DNA of 46,865 nt from an uncultured Clostridia bacterium (GTDB lineage: Bacteria > Bacillota > Clostridia > Oscillospirales > Acutalibacteraceae): the NCBI GenBank assembly GCA_947624285.1, contig CANQJS010000012.1:1-46865 (forward strand), read 5' to 3'. A program made the position numbers and the translations under genes. The notes below the pieces were generated by a model, which had not been told where the DNA came from, made no database searches, and worked only from the letters and a program-made list of their open reading frames with translations. Below are positions 244 through 13,316 of the stretch, piece after piece (the first letter of the stretch is position 1; each line of letters opens with the position of its first letter).

Positions 244-253
244 GTGATTTTAA

Positions 254-282
254 TTGACATTCGCCAATATTTTGTGTACAAT
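254..282 (+). promoter_or_regulatory. Sigma-A type promoter for the AAA ATPase gene
   Basis: TTGACA at 254-259 and TACAAT at 277-282 are separated by exactly 17 bp. Transcription would begin near 289. The in-frame ATG at 244 lies upstream of this and therefore cannot be the start of the downstream gene. Confidence 0.75.
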
Positions 283-315
283 GATGGCGAGAAGATTTTT
301 TGGGAGGAGTTACAG

Positions 316-1668
316 ATGTATCTGAGAAGAAAAGTCGATGCATTTTTAGACGAGTGGAAAGCGGATTGTAACCGAAAACCGCTCATAATCAAAGGAAGCC
401 GCCAGATCGGGAAAACCGAATCAATTTTGCATTTTGCGACCGAAAACTATGAAAACATCATTGAAATCAACTTTGTTCGGGACGAGAAGTACAAAGGAAT
501 CATTTCAGATGGGTACAGCGCTGAGGATATCATCAAGAACATTTCGCTGATCGACCCGTCAAAAAAGTTCGTACCGGGCAAGACCTTGATCTTTTTCGAT
601 GAGATCACGGAATTCCCTGAGATATCCACCTCCCTGAAATTCTTTTGCACGGACGGACGGTTTGATGTCATTTGCAGCGGCTCAATGCTGGGGATCAATT
701 ATAAAAGAATCGAAAGCAACAGCGTAGGCTACAAAACGGACTACGAAATGTTTTCGATGGATTTTGAAGAATTTCTTTGGGCAAAAGGGTATGGAAACGA
801 TACTGTTCAAAACATGCTTGACCATATGAAGGGGTTTTTGCCGTTCAGTGAATTGGAGATGAACACCTTTCACGCCCTGTTTTTGGATTACAACATTCTC
901 GGCGGGATGCCTGCCGTAGTTGCGGAGTATATTGAGCGGCACACCTTTGAGGGCTCTTTGAATACGCAAAAGCAGCTGATTGCAGATTATAAAGAGGATA
1001 TTCGCAAATATGCTTCCGGCGTCGACCAGACAAGAATAATCAATGTGTTTAACAGGGTTGCGCCGCAGCTTGCCAGAGAAAACAAGAAATTCCAAATCTC
1101 CAAGGTTGCGTCCGGCGCACGGTTTCGGGATTACCGTGGGTGTGCACAGTGGCTCGCAGACGCCGGTATGGTCAATATATGTTACTGTATGGAATTCCCG
1201 GAGCTGCCCCTCGGCGGAAATTACGAGCCGGACACATTTAAGCTGTACTTTGCGGACACAGGGCTGCTGGTGTCTATGCTGGACGACGAATCCCAAGAGG
1301 ATCTTCGAGCCAATAAAAACCTCGGCGTGTACAAAGGCGCTCTTTTTGAAAATATGGTAGGCGAAGCGTTGATCAAGCAGGGATACAAGCTCTACTACTA
1401 TCGAAAACAGGACTCCACGCTGGAAGCGGACTTTTTCATTCGCTCTGCGACCTCCTTGATTCCCATAGAGGTAAAGGCTAAAAGCGGGAGGGCAAAGTCC
1501 TTGAAAACCCTGATCGCATCGGAACATTATCCCGACATCCGATACGGCATAAAGCTGTCCAAAAACAACATCGGGCACGAATGCGGCATTTACACCTTTC
1601 CCTATTTCTGCACATTCCTGTTGAAGCGGTTTATGGCGGATTTTCACGCCAAGGAAGAAACGGAATGA
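316..1668 (+). CDS. AAA+ ATPase with C-terminal DUF4143 domain
   Basis: The product is about 450 aa. An N-terminal P-loop reads GSRQIGKTES, the Walker B-like segment is LIFFDE, and a sensor-like CSGSML follows, as in the archaeal-type ATPase/DUF4143 family common in gut Firmicutes and Bacteroidetes. The C-terminal segment contains LEAD and, about 15 residues later, IEVKAK. This matches the D...ExK pattern of PD-(D/E)xK nuclease-like folds typical of DUF4143. The start at 316 is chosen because GGGAGGAG (302-309) sits 6 nt upstream and the promoter at 254-282 excludes the earlier ATG at 244. The family's biological role is not established; proposals include DNA-related or defence-like functions. 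It is monocistronic and bounded by a terminator at 1836-1879. Its codon choice looks somewhat less GC-rich than the following genes, which may indicate separate acquisition. Confidence 0.85.
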   Translation: MYLRRKVDAFLDEWKADCNRKPLIIKGSRQIGKTESILHFATENYENIIEINFVRDEKYKGIISDGYSAEDIIKNISLIDPSKKFVPGKTLIFFDEITEFPEISTSLKFFCTDGRFDVICSGSMLGINYKRIESNSVGYKTDYEMFSMDFEEFLWAKGYGNDTVQNMLDHMKGFLPFSELEMNTFHALFLDYNILGGMPAVVAEYIERHTFEGSLNTQKQLIADYKEDIRKYASGVDQTRIINVFNRVAPQLARENKKFQISKVASGARFRDYRGCAQWLADAGMVNICYCMEFPELPLGGNYEPDTFKLYFADTGLLVSMLDDESQEDLRANKNLGVYKGALFENMVGEALIKQGYKLYYYRKQDSTLEADFFIRSATSLIPIEVKAKSGRAKSLKTLIASEHYPDIRYGIKLSKNNIGHECGIYTFPYFCTFLLKRFMADFHAKEETE

Positions 1669-1932: not shown

Positions 1933-2268
1933 ATGGGAAGAAGAAAAAAGAAAACGGCACAGGAAGAAGTACGCGACGGCTTAAGGCGCCTTGCCTTCGG
2001 AGAGATACATGACGCGGTACTGCTTCTTTTCGCCGATGAAAAAGAAATACTCGGAAAGCTGGACGAGCTCGATCTGTTCAACATCAGCGAAATAAAACGG
2101 CCTAAGGGCGGAGGTATGGAGATCAAATTTTTCGACAGGATAAGGGCGCTTGAAAAATTAAAAGATTCGGATAACGAGACTCCCGCTCAACCGTTGGGCT
2201 TTTATCGTGCGCTGGAGGAAAGCGTGAAGAACGCGCGGCTTGCATTTGACGATGACTGCGATGAATGA
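1933..2268 (+). CDS. Short terminase small-subunit-like protein
   Basis: The product is 111 aa, highly charged, with a basic N-terminus. A central segment around EIKRPKGGGMEIKFFDR followed by a helical RALEKL resembles the C-terminal part of clostridial phage small terminases. No obvious helix-turn-helix DNA-binding half is present, so compared with typical XtmA-type subunits (well over 150 aa) it appears short. The start has GGAGGG at 1923-1928 nearby. Its stop overlaps the TerL start by 8 nt, so the two are translationally coupled, as terminase pairs usually are. The assignment rests mainly on position and the C-terminal motif. If correct, it would recognise or nucleate DNA for packaging; loss of a recognition domain would fit non-specific packaging. 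Confidence 0.55.
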   Translation: MGRRKKKTAQEEVRDGLRRLAFGEIHDAVLLLFADEKEILGKLDELDLFNISEIKRPKGGGMEIKFFDRIRALEKLKDSDNETPAQPLGFYRALEESVKNARLAFDDDCDE

Positions 2269-3520
2269 TTTTGCCGCTTTCTCAAAAAAACAGCTTGCCG
2301 TGCTCACATGGTGGTGCGAAACAAGCCCCGTTAAAGGGAAAAACGGAATAATCTGCGACGGCGCGGTGAGGTCGGGAAAGACGCTTTGCATGAGCATATC
2401 CTTTGTTAGCTGGGCGTTTTATAATTTCAGCGACACCTCATTTGCGCTTTGCGGAAAGACCGTAACCTCCCTGAAACGGAATATTATAACACCGCTGATA
2501 CGGCATCTTTCATCCCTCGGTTTTAAATGCGATTACAAAACGAGCAGAAATTTGCTTGAGATAGAAAAAGCGGGCGTAAAAAACCGATTCTATCTTTTCG
2601 GCGGCAGAGACGAATCCTCGGCATCTCTTATACAGGGGATGACCCTCGGCGGAGTGCTGCTGGACGAGGTGGCGCTGATGCCGCGCTCCTTTGTGGAGCA
2701 GGCGCTGGCGCGTTGTTCGCTCGAAAACGCGAAATTCTGGTTCAACTGCAATCCCGAACATCCGTTTCACTGGTTTTATCTTGAATGGATAAAGAAACGG
2801 GAGTCAAAAAATATGCTTTATATTCATTTCAGAATGGAGGACAACCCCTCGCTGTCCGCCGCCGTTATAAACAGATACAAAAATCTTTACAGCGGCGCCT
2901 TTTACGAAAGGTTTATAGACGGCAGGTGGGTAGCCGCCGACGGGCTTGTTTATCCGATGTTCAGCGGCGATACCCATATTAGAAAAAGTGAAAAAGGCGT
3001 GTTTACATCTTATTATATGTCATGCGATTACGGCACGGTAAACCCCTTTTCTCTCGGGCTGTGGGGAAAGGCGGAGGACGGCTGGTTTCGCATAGACGAG
3101 TTTTATCACAGCAGCAGGGACAGAGGCGTTCAGCTCACCGATGAGGAATACTACGCGCGACTGAAAATGCTGGCGGGCGGCAGAAAGATCGAAGCGGTCG
3201 TAGTTGACCCCTCGGCGGCAAGCTTTATCGAGGTGATAAGGCGGCACGGTGAATACAGGGTGATAAAAGCCTGCAACGATGTGCTCAAGGGCATCAATCT
3301 CGTATGCTCTGCGCTGAAGAATAACGAGATCTTCTTTTATCCCGAATGCACGGACACGATAAGGGAATTTTCCGTTTACAGATGGGATAACGGGATCAAG
3401 AGAGACGCGCCGAAAAAAGAAAACGATCACGCGATGGACGACATCCGATACTTTGTCTCTACCGTTTTGCACGGCGGCGACAGTGAGGACGCGTTTTCCG
3501 TCGCGGTGGAAAGGATGTGA
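2261..3520 (+). CDS. Phage terminase large subunit
   Basis: The protein is about 419 aa, normal for XtmB/terminase_3-type motors. The Walker A motif GAVRSGKT is near residue 34 and the Walker B segment GVLLDEVALM near residue 130. The C-terminal RNase H-like nuclease shows CDYGTVNPF, VVVDPSAAS and a late NDHAMDDIRY, so all acidic catalytic residues appear present. It would pump and cut DNA at the portal. The start at 2261 (8-nt overlap with the upstream gene) is preferred over ATGs at 2240 and 2252 because the fold begins right after it, but no strong ribosome binding site decides this. The gene is intact, with no frameshift, which argues against simple decay. Confidence 0.9.
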   Translation: MNDFAAFSKKQLAVLTWWCETSPVKGKNGIICDGAVRSGKTLCMSISFVSWAFYNFSDTSFALCGKTVTSLKRNIITPLIRHLSSLGFKCDYKTSRNLLEIEKAGVKNRFYLFGGRDESSASLIQGMTLGGVLLDEVALMPRSFVEQALARCSLENAKFWFNCNPEHPFHWFYLEWIKKRESKNMLYIHFRMEDNPSLSAAVINRYKNLYSGAFYERFIDGRWVAADGLVYPMFSGDTHIRKSEKGVFTSYYMSCDYGTVNPFSLGLWGKAEDGWFRIDEFYHSSRDRGVQLTDEEYYARLKMLAGGRKIEAVVVDPSAASFIEVIRRHGEYRVIKACNDVLKGINLVCSALKNNEIFFYPECTDTIREFSVYRWDNGIKRDAPKKENDHAMDDIRYFVSTVLHGGDSEDAFSVAVERM

Positions 3521-3524
3521 AGAT

Positions 3525-4655
3525 TTGGGCTTATTTCGCAGTGAAAAAAAGGCACGAAGCCGCCGCGAAACGGCGGCGGTACAGACGGGTATGCGTTCAA
3601 GCCATCCCTATCGGCAGCTCACGACCAACGCGGCGATGGGGCTGAACTGTAAAATATATTCCTCCCTGCGTGAAGCGGTGCCGATAATCGACGCCGCGAT
3701 CTCCAAAATAGTGAGGCTCTGCGGAGGATTTCATTACGAAACAGGGAGCGCGGCGCTTGACTCTGCCATCAACACCTTTTTTGAAAGTATAAATGTCGGC
3801 GGCAACCAAATCGGCATAGACGCGTTTGTCTCCACATACCTGAACGAGCTGCTGACCTACGGCTCCGCCGTTGGTGAAATGATCGCCGATGACAGGGGCT
3901 TTTACGCGCTGTATAACGGTGAGTTGGAGGCGCTTGAGGTGAAAAGGGCGGCAAACGGTCTTGACCCGGAGTTTTACAACGGACGCGAGCGAATACCGCG
4001 TCAGGAGCTGATTTTGTTTTCCGCGCTTAATCCGCAGCCGGGAAGGCTTCTCGGAACAAGCCTGCTGCGGGGGCTTCCGTTTATTTCAAATATTCTGCTG
4101 ACGATTTACAACACGATAGGAGAAAATTGGGAGCACGCGGGGAATTTAAGATATGCCGTTACATATAAGCCCCAGTCGGAAAGCGGAGACTCCACGGGGG
4201 CTAAGGAGCGCGCCGAACAGATGGCAAAGGCGTGGCGCGAGGCGATGAGCAGCAAAGACACGGTCAAGGATTTTGTGGCTGTTGGCGATGTTTCGGTAAA
4301 GGTAATAGGAGCTGACAACAATGTGCTTGACAGCGAGATACCCGTAAAACAGCTTTTGGAGCAGATAATCGCCAAAACGGGGCTGCCGCCGTATATGCTT
4401 GGGCTGAGCTGGTCCACAACGGAGCGCATGAGCGTTCAGCAGGCGGATATTCTCACGACCGAGCTTGAGACCTACAGACGCATACTTACGCCGATGCTGC
4501 TGAAAATAGGCAGAAAATATCTTGAGGTCAACGGCGTTGCGTCATCTGTTGAGGTGGTGTGGGACAACATTACGCTTCAGGATGAGACAGAGCTTGCAAA
4601 AGCGAGGCTCTATGACGCCCAGACCGAAAAAATATTAAAGGAGGTCTATGCTTGA
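3525..4655 (+). CDS. Phage portal protein
   Basis: The product is about 376 aa and would form the dodecameric portal ring at the capsid vertex that the terminase docks on. I choose TTG at 3525 because GGAAAGG (3508-3514) sits 10 nt upstream and the resulting N-terminus (MGLFRSEKK) is typical of phage portals; an upstream ATG at 3453 lies deep inside the terminase gene. Characteristic stretches include REAVPIIDAAISKI near the N-terminus, an AYLNEL-like helix with YGSAVGEM, and the C-terminal SWSTTERMSVQQADIL. It starts 5 nt after the TerL stop and overlaps the next gene by 4 nt. Its length is slightly short compared with typical 400-500 aa portals but appears complete. Confidence 0.87.
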   Translation: MGLFRSEKKARSRRETAAVQTGMRSSHPYRQLTTNAAMGLNCKIYSSLREAVPIIDAAISKIVRLCGGFHYETGSAALDSAINTFFESINVGGNQIGIDAFVSTYLNELLTYGSAVGEMIADDRGFYALYNGELEALEVKRAANGLDPEFYNGRERIPRQELILFSALNPQPGRLLGTSLLRGLPFISNILLTIYNTIGENWEHAGNLRYAVTYKPQSESGDSTGAKERAEQMAKAWREAMSSKDTVKDFVAVGDVSVKVIGADNNVLDSEIPVKQLLEQIIAKTGLPPYMLGLSWSTTERMSVQQADILTTELETYRRILTPMLLKIGRKYLEVNGVASSVEVVWDNITLQDETELAKARLYDAQTEKILKEVYA

Positions 4656-5620
4656 AAGACGGCTACATAGAAAAAAGCTATATGCCGCTGCAAGAGGATA
4701 TAGAAAAAATAAGACAGTTTACAAGAAAGGAATTTTCAGAAGACGAGCTTTATGTTTTTACCCTTATCCTTTGCAGCAACGATATTGACAGGGATTTTGA
4801 AAAATTTTCCGTTTCCGCCCTTAAAGGGCTTGCCGAGCTTTTCGTGGGTAAAACGGGAATACGCGATCACTCAATGAAATCTTCGGACCAGACGGCGCGT
4901 ATTTTTGACGCTTGGGTCGAAAGAGTACCCGGCAAACAAACCGCCGACGGCGAGGAGCTCACCGTTCTTAAAGCGAAAGCGTATATGGTGCGAAGCGAGG
5001 AAAACCGCGCTCTTATCACCGATATCGACGCGGGAATAAAAAAAGAGGTTTCCGTCTCATGCTCCATGGCGTCCTGTGTTTGCTCGATTTGCGGCGAAAG
5101 CAGAAAGAGCGGCAAATGCAGCCATATTAACGGCAGGGAATACGCGGGCAAGCTGTGCTACAGCATTTTGAGCGAGCCCGTTGACGCATATGAGTGGAGC
5201 TTTGTGGCGGTCCCCGCGCAGCGAGACGCGGGTATAACAAAATCATTCAGCATTGCAAACGGAGATTTTAATATGGACGATATAAAAAAGAGCTTGAAAA
5301 GCGATGGGGAGGATATAACTCTCTCAAACGCGCAGGCAAGGGAGCTTTGCGACTATATTGAAGAGAAAGAAGCCCTTGCGCTGCTCGGCGAGGAATACAA
5401 AAAGACGCTTGTGAGGGAGCTTGTGGCGCTGTGCGCCAAATCCGTTCCCACAATGGATCTAAAGGTATTCGGCGGCGTGGCGGAGATCATGACCGTGAAG
5501 GAGCTTCAATGCTTCAAGGAGGCGTTTGAAAAGCAGCAGGCTGCCGAGAATATGCCCCAGCCCCAGCTTTCAAGGGCTCAGAAAAAAACAAAAAACGATT
5601 TTAACGAATTCAGAATCTAA
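4652..5620 (+). CDS. Prohead protease with C-terminal scaffold-like region
   Basis: The protein is 322 aa and starts at TTG 4652, 7 nt after a perfect AAAGGAGG (4637-4644), overlapping the portal stop. The N-terminal ~200 residues resemble caudoviral capsid maturation proteases: candidate catalytic His73 (GIRDHS) and Ser134/Ser136 (KEVSVS), then EWSFVAVPAQRDAG, which resembles the conserved end of the protease domain. Between them is a Cys/His cluster (Cys142, 144, 147, 156, His158, Cys169) that could bind zinc. Residues from ~208 on are charged and helical, like a scaffold, and begin at an internal Met preceded by its own ribosome binding site. It would assemble and process the prohead before DNA entry. 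Which Ser is catalytic is not certain. Confidence 0.75.
   Translation: MKDGYIEKSYMPLQEDIEKIRQFTRKEFSEDELYVFTLILCSNDIDRDFEKFSVSALKGLAELFVGKTGIRDHSMKSSDQTARIFDAWVERVPGKQTADGEELTVLKAKAYMVRSEENRALITDIDAGIKKEVSVSCSMASCVCSICGESRKSGKCSHINGREYAGKLCYSILSEPVDAYEWSFVAVPAQRDAGITKSFSIANGDFNMDDIKKSLKSDGEDITLSNAQARELCDYIEEKEALALLGEEYKKTLVRELVALCAKSVPTMDLKVFGGVAEIMTVKELQCFKEAFEKQQAAENMPQPQLSRAQKKTKNDFNEFRI
5273..5620 (+). CDS. Probable nested capsid scaffold (internal in-frame start)
   Basis: An ATG at 5273, in frame with the protease gene (codon 208), is preceded by GGAGAT at 5261-5266 at a suitable distance. Translation from here would give a 115-aa charged, mostly helical protein equal to the protease C-terminus. 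Nested scaffold genes inside protease genes are well known, as in phage lambda C/Nu3. The capsid protein downstream has no obvious N-terminal delta domain, so a separate scaffold is expected. This is inference from the start signal and analogy; no direct proof. Confidence 0.5.
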   Translation: MDDIKKSLKSDGEDITLSNAQARELCDYIEEKEALALLGEEYKKTLVRELVALCAKSVPTMDLKVFGGVAEIMTVKELQCFKEAFEKQQAAENMPQPQLSRAQKKTKNDFNEFRI

Positions 5621-5632
5621 GGAGGATTTGAT

Positions 5633-5974
5633 ATGTCATTTTCTTTTAAGGGATACGGTGAAAATATGCTCACATTCCCGACAAAGCTTACAGAGGCAGG
5701 CATCCCCGTCGTTGTGGGAGAAAACAGCGAGGTTTCAAAGGCGGCGGCCGACAAGGATTTTATCGGCGTTGCCGTAAGCGCGAACGGTGAATTCGCCGGC
5801 GTTATCCTGAACGGATATACCGAACTGCCGTATACGGGCACCGCTCCCGCGTTCGGCTTTTGCGCTCTTGCAGCCAACGGCACGGGAGGGGTCAAGACCT
5901 CGACCTCGTCAAACCATATTGTAAAGGTCATAAAAGTGGATACCGTCAATAAGACGGTGGGCTTTATTCTTTAA
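5633..5974 (+). CDS. Small head protein, decoration/stabiliser-like
   Basis: A 113-aa, Gly/Ala/Val-rich, beta-dominated protein is encoded immediately before the major capsid gene, with AGGAGG at 5619-5624. Position, size and composition match capsid decoration (DUF2190 or lambda gpD-like) proteins, which bind the expanded shell and stabilise it. Its stop (TAA, 5972-5974) lies 17 nt before the chosen capsid start. No catalytic motif is visible. It could alternatively be a small accessory head protein of unknown role. Confidence 0.6.
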   Translation: MSFSFKGYGENMLTFPTKLTEAGIPVVVGENSEVSKAAADKDFIGVAVSANGEFAGVILNGYTELPYTGTAPAFGFCALAANGTGGVKTSTSSNHIVKVIKVDTVNKTVGFIL

Positions 5975-5991
5975 TGAAAGGAGAAAACACA

Positions 5992-6984
5992 ATGGCATTT
6001 GATAATATAAGACTTGAAAAAGGACTTTACTCTACATCAAAGGGCTTCACGGCTTCTCTTGAGGAGCTTGACCCGTCGGAAAACTATATCGGCACCGATT
6101 ATGAGGGGCTTGACGCTTATCAGCGACAGCTCAAGCGATTTGATATAAAAGTATCGGGCGCCGGCTCGGATACGATTTCAAAATTCTTTCAGACCACCGA
6201 TTCCGCGGCGCTTTTCCCGGAATATATTTCACGCGCCGTTCAGCAGGGACTTGAGGAGGCGGATATTCTTCCCAAGATAATAGCCACCACCACGAATATT
6301 GATTCCCTCGATTACAGGGCTATCGAAAGCGTCCCGACCGAGGAGGATAAGGAGCTCGCGGCGGTAGCGGAGGGAGCGAAAATACCCGAAACGACGGTGA
6401 AAACAAAGGATAAGCTCACTACGCTGCACAAGAGGGGCAGAATGCTCGTGGCTTCATATGAGGCTGTCAAGTTCCAAAAGCTCGATCTTTTCACGGTAAC
6501 TCTCAGGCAGATAGGCGCGTATATCGCAAGAACGCAGCTTATTGACGCTTTGACAGCCATTTCAGCCAACGAGGCGACAGAAAAAATAGAAATGACCGGA
6601 AAGGTAGGCTACGAAAACCTTGTCAGCCTTTGGGACAAGCTTTCGCCTTATAAGCTTACTACCATCGTCGCAAGCTCAAGCGTTCTTGCCGATATTCTCG
6701 GTATAACCGAATTCAAGGATTCAAACGCGGGTCAGAGCTTCCACGGCACAGGCAGAATGATAACTCCGTTCGGCGCGGAGGTTTTGAAGGTGGGCAATAT
6801 TTCGGATAAGGTTTTATATGCCCTTGACAATTCCGCGGCGCTTGAAAAGGTGCAGGCGGGCGGCGTAACAACCGAGTACGACAAACTCATAGACCGCCAG
6901 CTTGAGCGCGCGGCGATAACGACGATAGCGGGCTTTTCGCCGATATTCTCTGACGCGGCGAAAATAATGACCTTTAACGACTGA
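5992..6984 (+). CDS. Major capsid protein, HK97 fold
   Basis: The product is about 330 aa. The ATG at 5992 is preferred over 5974 because AAAGGAG (5977-5983) falls between them at the correct distance from 5992. The sequence has a helical N-arm, a GAKIPETTVK stretch (E-loop/spine region), and the C-terminal pattern of a domain with GTGRMITPFGAEVLKV and a final FSDAAKIMTF. These features and the context after protease and decoration genes identify the shell protein. Length is normal for a major capsid protein that uses a separate scaffold. It is intact, so a capsid could be built from this locus. Confidence 0.85.
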   Translation: MAFDNIRLEKGLYSTSKGFTASLEELDPSENYIGTDYEGLDAYQRQLKRFDIKVSGAGSDTISKFFQTTDSAALFPEYISRAVQQGLEEADILPKIIATTTNIDSLDYRAIESVPTEEDKELAAVAEGAKIPETTVKTKDKLTTLHKRGRMLVASYEAVKFQKLDLFTVTLRQIGAYIARTQLIDALTAISANEATEKIEMTGKVGYENLVSLWDKLSPYKLTTIVASSSVLADILGITEFKDSNAGQSFHGTGRMITPFGAEVLKVGNISDKVLYALDNSAALEKVQAGGVTTEYDKLIDRQLERAAITTIAGFSPIFSDAAKIMTFND

Positions 6985-7007
6985 GCATTTGAAAGGAAGA
7001 TAAAGCT

Positions 7008-7364
7008 ATGATTGACAAGGAGCTTGTCACGGAAAGCATTATGATAATGGCGGGCATAGATTACGGCGAGGCGCAGACATATATGCCGTTTATCGCTTCG
7101 GCGGCGGCTTTCGTTGAGGAAAATCTCATCGAAGGGGCGGACGAAAACGACCCGAGAGTTATCCAGCTCGCCGCCGCAAAGGCGTACAAAAGCATCGAAC
7201 TCTCTATGTGCAGACAGGAGGAGCTTGCCGCTTTTACCGCAGGTGATGTTTCCGTAACGCTGTCGGACTCTCAGCCGAAAAACGCCGAGGAATACTACAA
7301 GTGTGCGCTTTCCGATTGCAAAGGGCTTTTAATCGATTCGGGCTTTGCCTTTTTAGGTGTTTAA
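7008..7364 (+). CDS. Head-tail connector (gp6/gp15-type)
   Basis: A 118-aa, largely helical protein starts at ATG 7008 after GAAAGGAAG. Its small size, helical acidic N-terminus (a run with AFVEENL) and a central ARG-like AAAKAYKSIEL helix fit the gp6-like adaptor family that forms the ring below the portal. It is the first of three small genes after the capsid, which is the standard place for connector, stopper and tail-terminator proteins. No enzymatic motif is seen. Confidence 0.65.
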   Translation: MIDKELVTESIMIMAGIDYGEAQTYMPFIASAAAFVEENLIEGADENDPRVIQLAAAKAYKSIELSMCRQEELAAFTAGDVSVTLSDSQPKNAEEYYKCALSDCKGLLIDSGFAFLGV

Positions 7365-7721
7365 ATGAATAAAGCTAAGTTAATTAAAAAAGGACTTGAA
7401 AAAACGGGGCGGCAGGTCACGCTTGAGGACGCAGGCTGGAGCTCCGTGCCGTTTTACGCCGTGATCAAGCAGAAATGGAAGAGCTACAAGTCCGATTTTG
7501 AATTCAATGAAACCGAGATCGGCAGGGTCAGTGCCGACTACTGTATTTATATCGGACCGTACGATCACGATATTACCGCTCTTTCCGATAACGCGGTCTT
7601 ATGCGTAGACGGCAGGAAATATATGTTTAAAAAGAAAGAGACGGAAAAACTCGGCGGCGAGACGGTGTATTACAGCGGGATCGTAAGAAGGATCTGGGAG
7701 GCAGAGGATGATCAAAGCTGA
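7365..7721 (+). CDS. Head-closure/stopper-like minor capsid protein
   Basis: This 118-aa protein starts directly after the preceding stop. A helical N-terminus is followed by a beta-rich body (FYAVIKQKW, a YIGPYDHD stretch, KYMFKKKE, YYSGIVRRIW), the pattern of XkdH/SPP1 gp16-type head-completion proteins that plug the portal after packaging. The 3' end overlaps the next gene by 14 nt. Assignment is from position and fold impression, not a diagnostic motif. Confidence 0.55.
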   Translation: MNKAKLIKKGLEKTGRQVTLEDAGWSSVPFYAVIKQKWKSYKSDFEFNETEIGRVSADYCIYIGPYDHDITALSDNAVLCVDGRKYMFKKKETEKLGGETVYYSGIVRRIWEAEDDQS

Positions 7722-8118
7722 AGAAATACTTGAAGAATTTATCGGCGCTCTTGAAGCGGACAGCTTCTTTGACGATATAAAAATAATAAAAGCCTATCCC
7801 CATTCGATAAAGCCGTCTTTTCCGAGCAACGCCGTTGTTGCGGCGGGAATAAAGCATATTGAGCTTGACGACTCCGGCGTGATGCAGAGCATCAAAACGG
7901 GAAAATACAGCATATTCACCGATATTTTTGTGCCGTATTCGCTAAACAGGCAGCGGCTTGAGGATATAGTTTTCCGCATAAGCGGCGATGTCGCAAAGTT
8001 CAATATAATATCCATAGAGATCACGGGGGCAAACGCGGATAACACGGCGGAATGTTTTGTGATGCGTGCGGTTTTTACATTCGGCGGTGAGATAGGCTTC
8101 GGGGAGGTATCGCAGTGA
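7708..8118 (+). CDS. Tail-terminator/tail-completion-like protein
   Basis: The protein is 136 aa, alpha/beta, starting at ATG 7708 behind a GGAGGCAGAGG ribosome binding region. A helical N-terminus (EILEEFIGAL) and alternating strands ending in AVFTFGG fit the XkdJ/gpU-like tail-terminator fold. In ordinary phages this protein caps the end of a tail tube, yet no tube gene is present here. It overlaps the 32-codon ORF by 4 nt (GTGA). Its retention suggests it still acts at the head neck, or that tube genes exist elsewhere. Confidence 0.5.
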   Translation: MIKAEEILEEFIGALEADSFFDDIKIIKAYPHSIKPSFPSNAVVAAGIKHIELDDSGVMQSIKTGKYSIFTDIFVPYSLNRQRLEDIVFRISGDVAKFNIISIEITGANADNTAECFVMRAVFTFGGEIGFGEVSQ

Positions 8119-8213
8119 CTGAGGAAAACGCCTATGAGCAGATGAAGGAGATATCCGAATATCTGCGCCTTGATTCCAAGAGATACGACACGGGAGTGAG
8201 CGAAACGCAATGA
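8115..8213 (+). CDS. 32-residue ORF at the missing-tail position
   Basis: GTG at 8115 has an excellent GGGGAGG (8101-8107) 7 nt upstream, and its TGA (8211-8213) overlaps the next start (ATG 8210) in an ATGA junction. The 32-residue product is hydrophilic (about half charged or polar, with an N-terminal acidic helix and a KRYDTG stretch near the end). It occupies exactly the place where sheath, tube, tail chaperones and tape measure would lie. It may be a neck adaptor, a remnant of a deleted tail gene, or a leader peptide coupling translation. I do not recognise a family. Confidence 0.6.
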   Translation: MTEENAYEQMKEISEYLRLDSKRYDTGVSETQ

Positions 8214-8716
8214 ATATGAAATTCAAAAATTTTGAGTTTCCGGCAAATCCCGAAACGGTGAGTGTGGATTATTCCGATAACATAAGGGAATTCCCTCTTT
8301 TCGACAGCGACAGCGCGGTTTGCAGAGTCTCCCGCAACGCCGCTCAAATAAGGTGCGGCGGCGCTTTTTGGGGAGAGGATCGTCTCGTTCTCGCGCAGGA
8401 GCTGAAAGGGCTGTTCAGAGACTGCTCCTCGGGTTGGCTTTTTCTGCCCGACGGGGAATGCTTCGACGCTTTTTTGGTTTCTCTCTCGGTTACGGAAACG
8501 GCAAAAAAGGGCTGTGTATCATACTCCATGGTTTTCAGAGAAAACTGCTCCCACAAAAAGTCAACGGCGCAGCTTGATTGCACTTACGCGCAGGAAAACG
8601 AAAATATGTTTGACATAGCTTACAGGTGCGGCGCAAGGGTAGAAACGCTTATGGAGCTGAACGAGTATAAAACTCCGTTCAGCGTGCAGGCGGGAGACAG
8701 GGTGATGCTGAAATGA
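8210..8716 (+). CDS. LysM-domain tail/baseplate protein (XkdP-like)
   Basis: The protein is 168 aa. The N-terminal ~115 residues are beta-rich and begin with FPANPETVSVDY, like the N-domain of XkdP-type proteins encoded just after tape measures. The last ~45 residues look like a LysM module (NMFDIAYRCGA, TLMELN, VQAGDRVML). In contractile phages this protein links tape measure, tube and hub and may touch peptidoglycan. Start alternatives are ATG 8210 (coupled to the upstream stop) or 8216. It overlaps the hub gene by 4 nt. Its preservation without a tape measure is unusual. Confidence 0.7.
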   Translation: MNMKFKNFEFPANPETVSVDYSDNIREFPLFDSDSAVCRVSRNAAQIRCGGAFWGEDRLVLAQELKGLFRDCSSGWLFLPDGECFDAFLVSLSVTETAKKGCVSYSMVFRENCSHKKSTAQLDCTYAQENENMFDIAYRCGARVETLMELNEYKTPFSVQAGDRVMLK

Positions 8717-9663
8717 AATTTGAATTTACCGATATAAACGGCGGGATATTCAAGCCGGAAAATATCGTATCCTACGAGCTTTCGCGGGAAGCGGGCGCTG
8801 CCTGCGACGGACTGCGCCTGAATTTTATCCCCGATGATTTTCCTCCCGAGCTTTGCGGCGTTAAGGCGTATTTGGGTGAAAAGCTTATATTCAACGGCTT
8901 TTGCGACAAGCAGAAAACCACCGTCTGCGAGACGGGGCTTCAATGCTTTGTGTACGCAAGAAGCAGCGCCGCCTTGCTTGTGGATAACGAGGCGGTGCCG
9001 TGTGAATACAACTGCCCGTCGGCAAGGCAGCTTTGGTACTCCAATGCCCGCGAGCTCGGCTTTTCCTGCGAACTTCCAGAGCTTTATTCGGAAAACAGCT
9101 ATCTTATATCGAAAGGCACAAGCCGCTTCGGAGTTATAAACGATTTTGTGAAGGCGACGGGCGGAATGCCCATTTATATCACGCCCGACAATGTGATAAA
9201 GGTATTTGAGAAAGGCGAAAAAGCAAAGTCGCTCAGGGATTTCAATATAATATCTCTGTCCCGAATCATAAACAGAAGCGAAGTCATCAGCGATATGGAT
9301 TGCAAGATAAGCGCTTCGGACTCTTACTCCTATCGCTTCAAAAGCGATTACGCAAGCGGCAGGGGTATCGTCAGAAAACGGCTGTATAACCTCTCCGCGC
9401 TGCCGATGTGGCAAAGGGAGATAACCGCAAGGGAAAAGATAAAAAAATCACTTGAGGAATACATCTGCGCTGAGGCGGTGATAGCCGGCGAGTGTGATTT
9501 GGAGCTTTTCGACAGGATAGAGGTATCGTTCGGAAAAAAAGGCGAAAGCGAAGAATTTTTCATAAGCGAAATAATACGCTCTAAAAGCGGGAGCGGAGAA
9601 AAGACCGCCGTGGTTATGAAACGAAATATTGACGGGGAGATCGTGAACTATGTGGCTCAGTAA
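8713..9663 (+). CDS. Baseplate hub protein (Mu gp44/XkdQ/late control D-like)
   Basis: The product is 316 aa, the normal length for the hub trimer of contractile tails. N-terminal strands (FEFTDINGGIF) and paired beta segments are followed by the TKGTSRFG-like signature (seen as ISKGTSRFGVINDF), a central GGMPIYITPDNVIKVFEKG, and a C-terminal FDRIEVSFG, consistent with the gp27/gp44 fold. The start is coupled through ATGA to the LysM gene. It would form the platform on which tube and spike assemble in a normal phage. Here it might attach more directly to the head neck, which is inference. Confidence 0.75.
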   Translation: MKFEFTDINGGIFKPENIVSYELSREAGAACDGLRLNFIPDDFPPELCGVKAYLGEKLIFNGFCDKQKTTVCETGLQCFVYARSSAALLVDNEAVPCEYNCPSARQLWYSNARELGFSCELPELYSENSYLISKGTSRFGVINDFVKATGGMPIYITPDNVIKVFEKGEKAKSLRDFNIISLSRIINRSEVISDMDCKISASDSYSYRFKSDYASGRGIVRKRLYNLSALPMWQREITAREKIKKSLEEYICAEAVIAGECDLELFDRIEVSFGKKGESEEFFISEIIRSKSGSGEKTAVVMKRNIDGEIVNYVAQ

Positions 9664-10021
9664 AAAATTTAACGAAAAGCAGAGCTTTGCCGCGGAAAAA
9701 GGAACGGTGGCTCTCGGAGGCAGCTCAACGCTTCGCCTGTCCGCCACGGCACAGTCTTTCAGAGTAAACTGCTACGCGCCTTACGGCTATTCGGCTTATG
9801 CGCCAGACGGGGAGGAGATACTTATCATCAACGGCTCCGACGGCAGCGCGGGCGCGGGCACAAGAATGAAAGACGAAACGCTGAAGGAGGGAGAAATATC
9901 CATAATTTCCGACAGCAAAGGATGCGTTAGGCTGAAAAATGACGGCTCGGTGCAGATAAACGGCTTCATTTTCACGCTTGACGGAAAAATAAAAAACTCA
10001 CAAGGAGAGATCGTTTTATGA
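9650..10021 (+). CDS. Baseplate spike protein (Mu gp45-like)
   Basis: The product is 123 aa. A PYGYSAYAPDGEE segment, then a GDRSHG-like turn (seen as GSDGSAGAG) and the C-terminal GEISIISDSKG...VRLKNDG...IN pattern match the OB-fold and start of the beta-helix of Mu gp45-type central spikes. These form the membrane-piercing tip of contractile injection devices. The beta-helix here is short, so the tip would be blunt. It overlaps the hub gene by 14 nt and the following gene by 4 nt. Confidence 0.7.
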   Translation: MWLSKKFNEKQSFAAEKGTVALGGSSTLRLSATAQSFRVNCYAPYGYSAYAPDGEEILIINGSDGSAGAGTRMKDETLKEGEISIISDSKGCVRLKNDGSVQINGFIFTLDGKIKNSQGEIVL

Positions 10022-10347
10022 CGCTGAAAATCGAAAACGGCGACTATGTGAAAAACGGCACAAAGCTTTTAGAGACTGATTGTATCGACGAGCTGCTGCA
10101 AAATGCCGTTATCGCGTTGTACGCCCCAAGGGGCGATTTTTATCCCGATAAGGATTACGGCTCATATCTTCTTGACCTGAAAACCGCCGACGGGGAGCGC
10201 GCCGCCTGCCTTGCAAGGCAGGCGGTGAGCAGGCTTGACGGAATTTTTATAAAATCCGCAAGCGAAACGCAAAACGGTCCGGAATTTATCATCACGGTCA
10301 ACGGCAGCGAAAGGAGGGTGCTTATCGATCATGAGCGTTACATATGA
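10018..10347 (+). CDS. Baseplate wedge protein (gp46/gp25-like, XkdS position)
   Basis: The 109-aa protein begins after AAGGAG in the preceding gene's 3' end. The N-terminal NGDYVKNG and CIDELLQNAVIAL segments, then RGDFYPDKDYGS, fit the Mu gp46/T4 gp25-like family that forms the baseplate wedge and in normal phages initiates sheath assembly. It overlaps the baseplate J gene by 17 nt. Retention of a sheath-nucleating family without any sheath gene nearby is one of the contradictions of this locus. Confidence 0.7.
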   Translation: MTLKIENGDYVKNGTKLLETDCIDELLQNAVIALYAPRGDFYPDKDYGSYLLDLKTADGERAACLARQAVSRLDGIFIKSASETQNGPEFIITVNGSERRVLIDHERYI

Positions 10348-11401
10348 TGAAATACTTAATTCAATGAAAAAAGCGTATTTTGAGGAAAAGGGCGAAAATG
10401 TAAAGAATTATTCCGAGCTTGATTTGAGATTCATGGCGGTCGCCTCTGAAATCTATTCCGTGTGCGCATACAATGATTTTATTTTGAAGCAGGGCTTTCC
10501 GCAGACGGCTACGGGCGAATATCTTGAAAGGCACGCCGCCCTCAGAGGGCTCACAAGAAAAAAGGCTTCCTGCGCAAAAGGGACTTTGACTTTCTCCCTT
10601 TCAAACGCAGTAAGCTATAAAATCAGGATACCCGCGGGCACGGTGTGCTCTGTTGACGGCAGACCTTTTCTTCAATTTGCCACGGATGAATCGGCGGAAA
10701 TAAACGCCAACACAAAAAGCGTTACAGTAAAAGCAACGGCATTGAGGGCGGGTGACGACCACAATGTTCCCGCGGGAACGGTTACCGTTATGGTAAATCC
10801 CACCGCCAATCTCAAAACGGTGACAAATGACGCCGCATTTTCAGGCGGCGGCGACGACGAGAGCGACGAATCACTCAGGGAGCGTCTGCTTTCTTCCTAT
10901 TCCGATCCAAACAGCAGCCTCAGCATATCGTCTGCGAGAGAACGGCTTATGACTATCGACACTGTTAAGGACGCCTACATTTACGCTGACACCGACTCAA
11001 CGCTGAAGGTCTGCCTTAAAACAGACGGTGGCACGATCTCAAGCAGTGTAAAAAACAAGGTCAACGAGCTTTTGGGGTTTGCGTCGCTTTGCAATGTTAA
11101 TATCGTGATAAACAGCGCGCAGGAGCTGCTCATCTGTGCCGTCGTTGATGCGAAGATGAAAAGCGGATATGATAAAACCGCTGTTGAAAATGCCGTCAAA
11201 GAAAGGCTCACCGCCTTTTGCAGCGGTGAAAAAATAGGGCAGAATTACAGCGAATCCGCGGCGGCGGCGGCATGCGCCGGAGCGCAGGGCGTTGAATATG
11301 TGAGCGTATGCTTCACAACAAATGAAGGCGGTGTTGTTTCCTGCGGCAGCGAGCAGTATCTAAAATTAGAGAAAATCGAGGTAAATGTTCATGAGCAGTA
11401 A
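10331..11401 (+). CDS. Baseplate J-like protein (Mu gp47/XkdT)
   Basis: The product is 356 aa, typical for baseplate J. The N-terminal helix and GEYLERHAALRGLTRK are characteristic, followed by a beta-rich domain (RIPAGTVCSVDG, AGDDHNVPAGTV), the GGGDDESDESLRERLL signature, and the C-terminal alpha/beta domain. AAGGAGGG (10311-10318) lies 12 nt before ATG 10331. It builds the peripheral wedges of a contractile baseplate. This is the most securely recognised baseplate gene in the cassette. Confidence 0.88.
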   Translation: MSVTYDEILNSMKKAYFEEKGENVKNYSELDLRFMAVASEIYSVCAYNDFILKQGFPQTATGEYLERHAALRGLTRKKASCAKGTLTFSLSNAVSYKIRIPAGTVCSVDGRPFLQFATDESAEINANTKSVTVKATALRAGDDHNVPAGTVTVMVNPTANLKTVTNDAAFSGGGDDESDESLRERLLSSYSDPNSSLSISSARERLMTIDTVKDAYIYADTDSTLKVCLKTDGGTISSSVKNKVNELLGFASLCNVNIVINSAQELLICAVVDAKMKSGYDKTAVENAVKERLTAFCSGEKIGQNYSESAAAAACAGAQGVEYVSVCFTTNEGGVVSCGSEQYLKLEKIEVNVHEQ

Positions 11402-11942
11402 AATTTTTGACCGACTTGAAGCGTTGACCCGCCGTTTGGGCATGAACACCGCTCACGGCACATTCACAAGGGCGGAGCTGGCGGCATACGCGGCGGCAGT
11501 AGAGCTTGCCGAGGAGAGCGCCGATAAGCTGCTGAACAATCTTTTCGTAGATACCGCAGACAGCGATGGGCTTGCCGGATTTCTCGGCTATATCGGCGAA
11601 TCTCCGGAAAGCAGCGATGAAAAAACGCGGCAGCTTATTCTCAAAGCGGTGCAGAGGAAAAAACAGCTTTTCAGTAAAACGGCTTTTGATAAGTACATTT
11701 CCTCTCTTAACGGCTCAACATATACTGTACAAAGCAACGAAATAATGCTCGATTTAAAAACGGAGTTCGGGGCGCAGAGCTTTGAAGCGGTCTCTGCGCT
11801 CCTTCGTGAATACATACCGTTTACCTCATTGCTCACCCTTACGGGGTGGGGTAAAAGGTTTTACGCGTGGGGCGCTCTCAATATGCCGTGGTATATGCTT
11901 GAAAGCTATAAGCTCCCGTTTTATGTGATTGATAAATTTTGA
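11391..11942 (+). CDS. Baseplate/tail protein (DUF2313, Mu gp48/XkdU-like)
   Basis: The protein is about 183 aa. ATG 11391 is chosen because GAGG (11378-11381) lies 9 nt upstream; ATG 11385 is too close. The N-terminal helical half (FDRLEALTRRLG, with a LADESADKL-like helix) and the C-terminal small beta domain fit the DUF2313 family, encoded directly after baseplate J in Mu- and PBSX-type phages. It links wedges to the receptor-binding fibres. It overlaps baseplate J by 11 nt. Confidence 0.7.
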   Translation: MSSKIFDRLEALTRRLGMNTAHGTFTRAELAAYAAAVELAEESADKLLNNLFVDTADSDGLAGFLGYIGESPESSDEKTRQLILKAVQRKKQLFSKTAFDKYISSLNGSTYTVQSNEIMLDLKTEFGAQSFEAVSALLREYIPFTSLLTLTGWGKRFYAWGALNMPWYMLESYKLPFYVIDKF

Positions 11943-11962
11943 TTTTCTGAAAGGAGAATGTT

Positions 11963-12436
11963 ATGAGCTCGAAAAAAAAGACAAGAAATCTTAATCTGAA
12001 TATGTGGGCAAGTACGGATATTCCCCAAATGTCGGATTTTAATTCCGACAATGTAAATATCGAGACGGGATTTACAAGGCACTCCACCGATATCAACTTG
12101 CACATCGCATCCGATGAGAGGCAGAGGTGGGATTCTCCGTGTTACTGCGGCAGTTACACGGGCAACGGAGCCTCAAGCAGAACTATTGAAACGCATTGCG
12201 GCTTCGTGCCGTCTTTCGGCTTGGTTTTTGCCGCGTCGATGCCGCCGTCTGCCGTGGATTTCAACAACAAAGTAAAACGCGGCTTTTTCGGCGTGTTTAC
12301 AGCCGCCGGAGGCACAACGGGCATTTCCGCCTCACAGGAGAATTTTACCGTGACCAACAATACATCCTCATCAAACGGCGATTACATAAGCCTTAATCAA
12401 AGCGGGGTAATATACCACTACGCGCTTTTCAGATAA
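11963..12436 (+). CDS. Minimal tail-fibre-like protein
   Basis: The 157-aa product follows an AAAGGAG (11950-11956). The N-terminal ~60 residues (LNLNMWASTDIPQMSDFNSDN, about one strand-helix unit) resemble the baseplate-attachment module of clostridial tail fibres. The rest is a small Gly/Ser/Thr-rich beta domain of about 95 residues ending in YHYALFR. Ordinary fibres are several times longer and followed by chaperones; none is present. It could be a compact adhesin or tip knob. It is the last cassette gene, ending 55 nt before the coaX promoter. Confidence 0.55.
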   Translation: MSSKKKTRNLNLNMWASTDIPQMSDFNSDNVNIETGFTRHSTDINLHIASDERQRWDSPCYCGSYTGNGASSRTIETHCGFVPSFGLVFAASMPPSAVDFNNKVKRGFFGVFTAAGGTTGISASQENFTVTNNTSSSNGDYISLNQSGVIYHYALFR

Positions 12437-12554: not shown

Positions 12555-13316
12555 ATGCTCCTTGCGGTAGATATAGGCAACACAAATATTGTTCTCGGCG
12601 TTTTGGACGGCGAAAAGCAGGTCTGCTCCGGCAGGCTTTCAACAAATCTCAAAGAAACGGATATCGAGTATTCGATAAAGCTCAAAGCGTTTCTTGAGAT
12701 CAACAAAGCGGGGGAGATAGACGGCGCGATAATTTCAAGCGTAGTACCCGCGCTCAGCAGAACTCTTTTGAAGAGCATAAGGCTCGCCTGCGGCGTAGAG
12801 GCGCTTGTGGTGGGGCCCGGTATAAAAACGGGGCTAAACATAAGAATAGACAATCCTTCGGAGCTCGGGGCGGACATTGTCGTGGGCGATGTGGCGGTAA
12901 TAAATAAGTATCCGCTCCCCGCGATCATCTTTGATTTCGGCACTGCCACAACGGCTTCCGTTATAGATAAAACAGGCGCGCATTTGGGCGGTGCAATAAT
13001 GTGCGGAGTCAAAACGGCTATAAATTCCCTTTCGAGCGGAACGGCTCAACTGCCGCAGGTGGATATTTCCGCGCCGTCAAAGCTTATAGGCACAAATACG
13101 ATAGACGCGATGAAAAGCGGCTCGGTGGTAGGCACGGCGGCGATGCTTGAGGGTCTTGTCGCTCGGTTTGAAAAAGAGCTCGGCGAAAAGGCAACGGTCA
13201 TAATAACGGGAGGCCTCGGCAAGGCGATCGCCCGCGCCACCGAGCTTGATGTTATAGTGGATGAAGATCTTCTGATAGACGGATTAAGGATAATATACGA
13301 AAAAAACAGGAAGTAA
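12555..13316 (+). CDS. coaX: Type III pantothenate kinase
   Basis: The 253-aa product phosphorylates pantothenate in the first step of coenzyme A synthesis. The ASKHA-fold phosphate loop reads AVDIGNTNIVLGV at the N-terminus. DIVVGDVA and FDFGTATTASVID in the middle match the conserved blocks that carry the catalytic Asp and the pantothenate site. GGAMMCG- and TGGLGKAIA-like segments complete the fold. GGAGGTG (12542-12548) precedes ATG 12555. Type III kinases are not feedback-inhibited by CoA. Length is standard for the family. It is the first ordinary housekeeping gene after the phage cassette. Confidence 0.93.
   Translation: MLLAVDIGNTNIVLGVLDGEKQVCSGRLSTNLKETDIEYSIKLKAFLEINKAGEIDGAIISSVVPALSRTLLKSIRLACGVEALVVGPGIKTGLNIRIDNPSELGADIVVGDVAVINKYPLPAIIFDFGTATTASVIDKTGAHLGGAIMCGVKTAINSLSSGTAQLPQVDISAPSKLIGTNTIDAMKSGSVVGTAAMLEGLVARFEKELGEKATVIITGGLGKAIARATELDVIVDEDLLIDGLRIIYEKNRK

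What the first reader, a model, noticed from the sequence alone, without database searches (positions are those of the whole stretch)
1933..12436. Intact capsid-packaging-baseplate cassette with no tail tube, sheath, chaperone or tape measure
Seen: terminases, portal, protease, capsid, three neck proteins, LysM protein, hub, spike, wedge, baseplate J, DUF2313 and fibre-like genes lie in one open, tightly coupled operon. Known: in Mu/PBSX-type phages, the sheath, tube, chaperone and tape-measure genes lie exactly between tail-completion (here 7708-8118) and LysM (here 8210) genes. Here that interval is a 32-codon ORF. Inference: a particle with a baseplate docked on, or close to, the head neck, i.e. 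a minimal gene-transfer-agent-like or DNA-delivery device; alternatively a partly deleted prophage.
Basis: partly seen in the sequence, partly recalled or inferred. Interest (0 to 1): 0.88.

Follow-up and report, generated by a model that had tools for sequence, protein, structure and literature searches.

The report
Tailless-neck phage particle kept by bacteria
A gut-type bacterium and most of its sequenced relatives keep, as an ordinary chromosomal operon, the genes for a virus-like DNA-packaging head with a landing baseplate but no tail between them, probably a stripped-down device for moving bacterial DNA between cells.

Summary
At 1933-12436 lie terminases, portal, protease-like protein, capsid, three neck-position proteins and a baseplate (LysM, hub, spike, gp25-like, J, gp48, fibre), with no sheath, tube or long tape measure. 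It is not a decaying prophage: the portal occurs at one locus in 71 of 80 genomes of the genus; in 58 of these J lies 6.4-7.2 kb from it; head and baseplate protein trees share 15 of 21 and 15 of 20 splits with rpoB; dN/dS is 0.055-0.40 for all 16 genes against the nearest relative. Tail genes elsewhere are rare: a second J locus, the sign of a separate contractile prophage, occurs in 5 of 71 cassette genomes. Related host-embedded cassettes form a reduction series: sheath and tube with a tape-measure-position protein of 100-229 residues; tube only; neither (here); head only. The 32-codon ORF at the junction is probably the C-terminus of that protein. TerL motifs are intact; TerS lacks the N-terminal part of its Pfam domain. 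Best reading: a domesticated gene-transfer-agent-like particle with a zero-length tail. The nearest published system, FpGTA, gave no convincing TerL match. Packaging and transfer remain untested.

The parts
1933..2268 (+). TerS, 111 aa, matching only positions 59-126 of 141 of Terminase_2 (PF03592)
   Evidence: below Pfam's cut-off
2240..3520 (+). TerL; Walker A GAVRSGKT, Walker B VLLDE and three nuclease acid motifs present (motif names recalled)
3453..4655 (+). portal (phrog_30703); homologues suggest the true start is near 3525
4652..5620 (+). protease-like/scaffold protein, phrog_16951 (function inferred from position)
5633..5974 (+). small head protein phrog_4588, decoration-like; not found in some relatives
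5974..6984 (+). major capsid protein phrog_3922 / PF25209
7008..7364 (+). n1, head-tail adaptor by position
   Evidence: no convincing PDB match
7365..7721 (+). n2, stopper by position
   Evidence: no convincing PDB match
7708..8118 (+). n3, tail terminator/completion by position; fused to tube or to fibre in some relatives
8115..8213 (+). 32-codon ORF (GTG start), probable C-terminal stub of the tape-measure-position gene
8210..8716 (+). LysM baseplate protein, tail-tube-initiator-like by position
   Evidence: (initiator structure only at E 0.39)
8713..9663 (+). baseplate hub (Mu gp44 type)
9650..10021 (+). spike, gp45-like (weak)
10018..10347 (+). gp25 / sheath-initiator-like wedge protein (weak)
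10331..11401 (+). baseplate J, gp6-like wedge
11385..11942 (+). Mu gp48-like (DUF2313)
11963..12436 (+). fibre-like, candidate receptor-binding protein
   Evidence: weak matches only
12555..13316 (+). coaX (type III pantothenate kinase), host gene: right boundary of the cassette

Best explanation
A domesticated, vertically inherited phage remnant that makes a gene-transfer-agent-like particle with a zero-length tail. SHOWN by sequence: packaging, head and baseplate modules; TerL with its motifs; a TerS without the N-terminal part of its family domain; no sheath, tube or long tape measure at the locus, and tail genes elsewhere in only a few genomes of the genus; near-fixation, vertical descent and purifying selection. 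INFERRED: TerL with a TerS that no longer reads a pac site fills small heads with host DNA; adaptor, stopper and terminator (n1-n3) close the head; the baseplate assembles around the tape-measure stub; the terminator ring, which normally caps the tube, sits directly on the tube-initiator-like LysM ring. Fibre, LysM domain and spike let the particle bind and pierce a recipient wall without sheath contraction, as in a short-tailed phage. Lysis and regulation must come from unlinked genes.
For: One locus in 71 of 80 genus genomes, 47 of 51 high-quality ones; gene order kept over capsid identities of 50-89% within the genus; the same downstream host neighbours, DUF1015 in 22, M28 in 18 and coaX in 13 of 29 loci (DUF1015 checked by Pfam in L148 and L149); 15 of 21 splits shared with rpoB (300 shuffles: mean 0.35, max 4), Mantel r 0.77; dN/dS 0.055-0.40; TerL motifs; TerS truncation; exactly one J match in 66 of 80 genomes and a second J locus in 5 of 71 cassette genomes; PF04984 sheath 2 of 80, DUF2001 tube 3 of 80; a tail-reduction series on a 121-locus head tree, 19 state changes against at least 64 in 200 shuffles; no integrase in the 14 neighbouring or more distant window proteins scanned outside the cassette. 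Precedent in the same order: FpGTA particles, about 40 nm, no identifiable tails, about 9 kb DNA (PMC12946183 section 9).
Against: No particle, packaged DNA or transfer is shown. No lysis or regulatory gene was seen linked. Nine of 80 genomes lack a portal match, 4 of them high-quality, so the cassette is dispensable. G083 has TerL in two pieces, G061 the portal and G074 the J gene in two. A gp25-like 'sheath initiator' is retained without a sheath. n1-n3 roles rest on position. Two sheathed cassettes also have a truncated TerS (L170, L050), so truncation is not tied to tail loss. The sheath search has a blind spot (phrog_23 type). FpGTA gave no convincing homology, so its phenotype is only an analogy.
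Confidence: 0.6

Rival explanations
1. A domesticated particle whose job is not DNA transfer: for example a killing, immunity or cargo particle in which the head is loaded but DNA delivery is not the selected function.
For: [quoted passage not shown] The baseplate with LysM and spike could damage a wall.
Against: Packaging and head genes are among the most constrained (TerL dN/dS 0.073, capsid 0.058). Tailocin-like killing normally needs sheath and tube (recalled), absent here.
Confidence: 0.2
2. Tail parts are supplied in trans by another locus of the same genome, as FpGTA uses a second operon.
For: FpGTA has a second operon about 125 kb away in strain APC918/95b. PF04984 misses phrog_23-type sheaths that do occur in prophages of the genus, and a novel tube could be missed too.
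Against: Contractile prophages bring their own J, and only 5 of 71 cassette genomes have a second J locus. The cassette's own tube family has 0 convincing matches in 80, DUF2001 3 of 80. The baseplate is already in the cassette, and the tape-measure-position gene has shrunk to a stub at the same junction.
Confidence: 0.12
3. Capsid-forming satellite or phage-inducible island that borrows a helper phage's tail.
For: Head genes without a tail resemble capsid-forming islands (recalled).
Against: It keeps its own baseplate; one copy, recurrent site, vertical descent; no integrase beside it in the window; possible helper prophages with J are seen in few genomes.
Confidence: 0.05
4. A partly deleted, decaying prophage.
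For: Missing tail genes; a few broken copies (G083, G061, G074).
Against: dN/dS well below 1 in all 16 genes, 71 of 80 genomes, narrow spacing in 58 genomes.
Confidence: 0.02

Closest known systems
FpGTA I/II of Faecalibacterium prausnitzii (PMC12946183)
   Same: Same bacterial order; host-embedded head operon of about 10 kb; TerS without an obvious DNA-binding domain; particles without identifiable tails
   Different: Baseplate and lysis genes in a second operon; called podovirus-like; our TerL profile finds one fragment at E 0.0055 and otherwise nothing in 6 genomes of a genus that is probably Faecalibacterium
RcGTA and other alphaproteobacterial GTAs (recalled)
   Same: Domesticated head-packaging cluster under purifying selection, reduced TerS, small capacity expected
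   Different: Those have a siphovirus-type tail; here there is no tube gene
PBSX/Mu-type contractile tails, including solved structures 8q01 and 9g8s
   Same: Order LysM-hub-spike-gp25-J-gp48-fibre (order in PBSX recalled); the tube of related cassettes matches tail tube protein 8q01 at 1e-4
   Different: Sheath, tube, chaperone and long tape measure absent
phi29-like and other short-tailed phages (recalled)
   Same: Expected look: head with a stub
   Different: The baseplate here is of contractile-tail type

Membership tests
Gene transfer agent (viriform) | Virus-derived cluster near-fixed in host chromosomes and inherited vertically | tested here: met
Gene transfer agent (viriform) | Structural and packaging genes kept under purifying selection | tested here: met
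   TerL motifs
Gene transfer agent (viriform) | No integration or phage replication module in the cluster | tested here: met
   16 cassette genes named; neighbours on both sides and 10 of 21 large ORFs right of 15 kb are host-type, including a host-type DNA polymerase I; only 1.9 kb of contig lies left of the cassette
Gene transfer agent (viriform) | Packaging initiation not tied to a pac site (TerS DNA-binding part lost) | tested here: inconclusive
   PF03592 N-terminal part absent in the window and L038, also in sheathed L170 and L050; full in L088, L103, L123, L128, L165; no hit in L115. That this part holds the HTH is recalled; packaging not assayed
Gene transfer agent (viriform) | Particles carry random host DNA | not testable with these tools
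   needs particles
Gene transfer agent (viriform) | DNA transferred to recipient cells | not testable with these tools
   needs an assay
FpGTA family | Homologous TerL | tested here: not met
   A1 in 6 g122 genomes: one fragment at E 0.0055, otherwise none. g122 as Faecalibacterium rests on recalled 16S sites in G828 only; G504 of another genus carries them too; portal and capsid not tested there at a loose limit
Contractile-tailed (PBSX/Mu-type) phage or tailocin | Sheath, tube and tape measure present in the cluster | tested here: not met
   genome-wide with the blind spot
Capsid-forming satellite island | Integrase/attachment site and variable occurrence | tested here: not met
   single recurrent site, no integrase beside it in the window; attachment sites were not searched for

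The most novel reading that the evidence does not exclude
An order-wide family of domesticated particles in which evolution has repeatedly run the tail down to nothing, with the tape measure shrinking in step: sheath plus tube with a 100-229-residue tape-measure-position protein; one tube gene, sometimes fused to a neck protein so that tube number is fixed, with a stub of about 40-70 residues; no tube with a stub of mostly 28-56 residues (window genus); and head-only forms, some with the terminator fused to a fibre domain. In the window genus the terminator docks directly on the tube initiator, giving what would be the first DNA-delivery particle known to me with a contractile-type baseplate and no tail tube.
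Probability: 0.5. Interest if true: 0.92.

Novelty: new variant of a known kind. Interest (0 to 1): 0.86.

Why it matters
It would be a second GTA-like lineage in gut Clostridia, and a widespread one: a capsid profile matched 71 of 394 genomes sampled across the order, 35 of the 43 listed for the family. GTA-like DNA packaging has been measured in several gut taxa for which no operon was reported, so this family is a concrete candidate list. It also offers a natural experiment on tail-length control: how far a tape measure can shrink and still seed a baseplate, and whether a terminator can sit on an initiator with no tube. Relatives in named, sequenced strains (Faecalispora sporosphaeroides DSM 1294, Scatolibacter rhodanostii) make it testable.

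Tried and rejected
Recent deletion or decay: rejected on prevalence, spacing, congruence and dN/dS. Tube or sheath encoded elsewhere: three genome-wide searches, little support; but on checking, the sheath family used misses phrog_23-type sheaths of prophages in G001, G027 and G011, which is why I lowered the best reading from 0.62 to 0.60 and raised the in-trans rival from 0.10 to 0.12 (satellite 0.04 to 0.05). A first tube profile drifted by taking in fusions; it was rebuilt from unfused members and the fusions rechecked: those in L131/L183, L179, L184, L187 and L195 rest on weak tube signals (E 1e-4 to 0.03); L112, L175, L186 and L193 are firmer. My early label 'fib' for tailless loci was partly wrong: several are n3 alone, others n3-fibre fusions. 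For the tree tail states were assigned by hand, loci cut by contig ends were mostly dropped, and the group meant as outgroup was not monophyletic (L050 fell inside), so the midpoint root was used. NG86 dS is saturated in several of the eight pairs (infinite values, printed as ratio 0); n3 of L028/L029 reaches 0.53. The rpoB search found 25 of 30 genomes, the window's own not among them; 24 were used. Of 146 viral-collection loci 131 had a capsid match, and 47 of those were cut by contig ends. Stub profile: four of ten sheathed loci (L165, L166, L167, L170) gave no hit below 1, and most tube-only loci score above 0.01 although the motif is visible. No protease alignment was made (one search failed) and no structure prediction was obtained.
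Full report
WHAT IS THERE. The window is the whole of contig 12 (46,865 bases) of a 1.59-Mb, 75%-complete genome in 27 contigs. Between an AAA/DUF4143 gene (244-1668) and coaX (12555-13316) lie 16 co-oriented, tightly packed genes plus one tiny ORF. Family searches support terminase large subunit, portal, capsid, LysM protein and J; the protease-like protein falls in a strong but functionally unknown family; TerS, gp48 and the gp25-like protein match below Pfam's cut-offs. The hub is supported by profile (phrog_177 in 15 of 16 members, Mu-type 43-kDa structures from 2e-4). The spike is weak (E 0.012). n1, n2 and n3 are named from position. The LysM protein is called tube-initiator-like because its position is that of XkdP (recalled) and PF07157 hits 3 of 12 members; the structure annotated as gp61 tail tube initiator appears only at E 0.39, below many plain LysM domains.

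THE GAP. Between n3 and the LysM gene the window-clade loci have roughly 50-120 bases with a small conserved ORF and nothing else (in L037 the gene calls leave 6 bases because the LysM frame was started early). In the window it is 8115-8213, 32 codons, overlapping its neighbours.

GENOME-WIDE ABSENCE. PF04984 sheath: 0 in the own genome, 2 of 80 in the genus. Those two, G011 and G068, carry separate PBSX-type prophages with tape measures of 1,196 and 1,169 residues; G068 has no portal match. Tube profile of the related cassettes: one marginal match in 80, with a stop. DUF2001 tube: 3 of 80, G011, G068 and G015, the last in two fragments on different contigs and not inspected. B. subtilis rang as a control for both families (PF04984 also in E. 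coli and Synechococcus). A check at the end showed a blind spot: prophages of G001, G027 and G011 have phrog_23-type sheaths that PF04984 misses or barely sees, and in G001 a PF04985 tube. A better yardstick for contractile prophages is J: 66 of 80 genomes have exactly one J match, 7 none, 7 more than one (in G074 one gene in two pieces); of the 71 cassette genomes 5 (G011, G015, G027, G077, G101) have a second J locus. So most carriers show no sign of another contractile tail, though a lone unrecognised tube or sheath gene cannot be excluded.

FIXATION AND DESCENT. With the capsid protein alone as query, 33 of 37 genus members (own genome included) and 1 of 23 other genomes matched. The portal profile finds 71 of 80 genus genomes, 47 of the 51 high-quality ones, each at one locus (in G061 as two adjacent pieces), and none of 14 control genomes. 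J lies on the same contig and strand 6,434-7,173 bases from the portal in 58 of the 71; in the other 13 the two were not found together on a contig. Downstream host genes recur: DUF1015 in 22, M28 in 18, coaX in 13 of 29 loci; of the eight families recurring in six or more loci none looked like a lysis or regulatory gene to the eye, within up to 9 kb downstream and at most 5.7 kb upstream. Head and baseplate trees share 15 of 21 and 15 of 20 splits with rpoB in 24 and 23 genomes (shuffle maxima 4 and 2), Mantel r 0.77 each. Against the nearest relative dN/dS runs from 0.055 (n2) and 0.058 (capsid) to 0.40 (gp25-like).

RELATIVES AND THE REDUCTION SERIES. A capsid profile finds 71 of 394 genomes drawn across the order, including 35 of the 43 listed for the same family; 69 of the 71 have one match, G387 two loci and G469 two short fragments. 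The TerL scan kept the best 80 of 563 relatives; titles are mostly Clostridia, Eubacterium, Ruminococcaceae and Oscillospiraceae MAGs, with Faecalispora jeddahensis (cut by its contig end), Clostridium sporosphaeroides DSM 1294 and Scatolibacter rhodanostii among named strains. These loci share the head genes and differ in the tail. (S) Sheath plus tube, 12 loci with a sheath match, and a 100-229-residue protein in the tape-measure position in the seven where its C-terminal motif could be seen. (B) Tube without sheath; the tube family matches tail tube protein 8q01 at 1e-4, and in some loci the tube is fused to a neck protein. (A) No tube: the window genus, and apparently L174, L178 and L182. 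(C) Head plus n3 or an n3-fibre fusion and then, to the eye, host genes; none of 22 genomes tested (21 of this type and L130, completeness not told) has a J relative at 1e-6, while three genomes of other types in the same call do. (D) A hub but no J. On a 121-locus head tree, states change 19 times against a minimum of 64 in 200 shuffles; S forms lie at the base under midpoint rooting and in scattered branches; the window clade is one group of 41 with support 1.00. In the viral-contig collection the capsid scan kept 80 of 367 relatives; of 131 loci classified from two scans only two had any ORF over 600 residues downstream of the capsid gene, neither between tube and LysM gene.

THE STUB. A profile trained on 20 window-clade stubs finds the motif before the LysM gene in all 57 window-clade loci (E 4.1e-6 or better) and at E below 0.1 in 6 of 10 sheathed loci (L196 at 3e-7, then L171, L185, L172, L050, L173), where it is the C-terminus of the tape-measure-position protein; the best of 393 reversed controls scored 0.77. 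Homology is therefore likely but not certain, and four sheathed loci gave no hit below 1. That tape-measure C-termini bind the baseplate hub is recalled.

TERMINASE. TerL has its motifs. TerS covers only positions 59-126 of PF03592; of eight relatives compared outside the window genus five have the full domain, two sheathed ones (L170, L050) are truncated likewise and one (L115) had no match. Median TerS length, from the first start codon, is 110 in the window genus and 158-189 in the other classes, with overlapping ranges. FpGTA's TerS is also said to lack an obvious DNA-binding domain (PMC12946183 section 9); what the truncation means here is inferred.

PRIOR WORK. Eight full-text searches in the open-access library found one close paper, PMC12946183; I read its outline, passages and sections 9, 10 and 26, not the rest; of all other papers I saw only the listings. 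No bioRxiv collection was held. The paper's main text does not contain Acutalibacteraceae, Oscillospirales or 'tailless'. Its FpGTA I operon is in all twelve Faecalibacterium genomes its authors examined, yet my TerL profile finds nothing convincing in six genomes of a genus one of whose members (G828) carries recalled Faecalibacterium 16S sites six times on a single contig, so the two systems appear to be separate lineages. A genome of another genus, G504, also carries those sites, so the identification is probable, not sure. The GTDB family name Acutalibacteraceae is recalled, not from a call.

VERDICT. A real, old and selected system; a new variant of the gene-transfer-agent kind with a gene content I found nowhere in print in these searches; function inferred, not shown.

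Noticed in passing
L049 (MT835508.1), L050-L052: Four GenBank 'Bacteriophage sp.' records from human faeces carry these cassettes; MT835508 also carries what by eye is a ribosomal-protein operon and other host genes, so it looks like bacterial chromosome filed as phage.
   Followed up: partly
IMG/VR loci L232-L377: A capsid scan reported 367 relatives in the viral collection (80 kept); many kept contigs are about 10-14 kb, probably trimmed out of host chromosomes by prophage callers.
   Followed up: partly
L158-L164, L130, L168: Cassettes with head genes and a baseplate hub but no J, spike or wedge found: a further, unexplained reduced form.
   Followed up: partly
L087, L088, L090, L091, L093, L094, L096-L098, L101, L103-L107, L118, L119, L124, L129, L191: Head-only cassettes ending in n3 or an n3-fibre fusion, followed by what look like host genes.
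   Followed up: partly
L112, L175, L186, L193: Neck protein and tail tube protein in one ORF, which would fix the number of tube subunits per particle.
   Followed up: partly
L149 (G083), G061, G074: TerL in two pieces in G083, portal in two in G061, J in two in G074: broken copies or assembly errors.
   Followed up: no
G001, G007, G066, G068: Four high-quality genomes of the genus have no portal match, so the cassette can be lost.
   Followed up: no
L151 (G001), L152 (G027), L147 (G011): Prophages with phrog_23-type sheaths that Pfam PF04984 misses or barely detects; a caution for sheath surveys.
   Followed up: partly
window 244-1668: AAA_14/DUF4143 ATPase directly upstream of the cassette; no match in the fetched stretches of the relatives compared.
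   Followed up: no
L131, L115, L174, L182: In several other genera the cassette sits just upstream of an HflX-like GTPase gene (Pfam-checked in L131; by eye in the others), a second recurrent site.
   Followed up: partly
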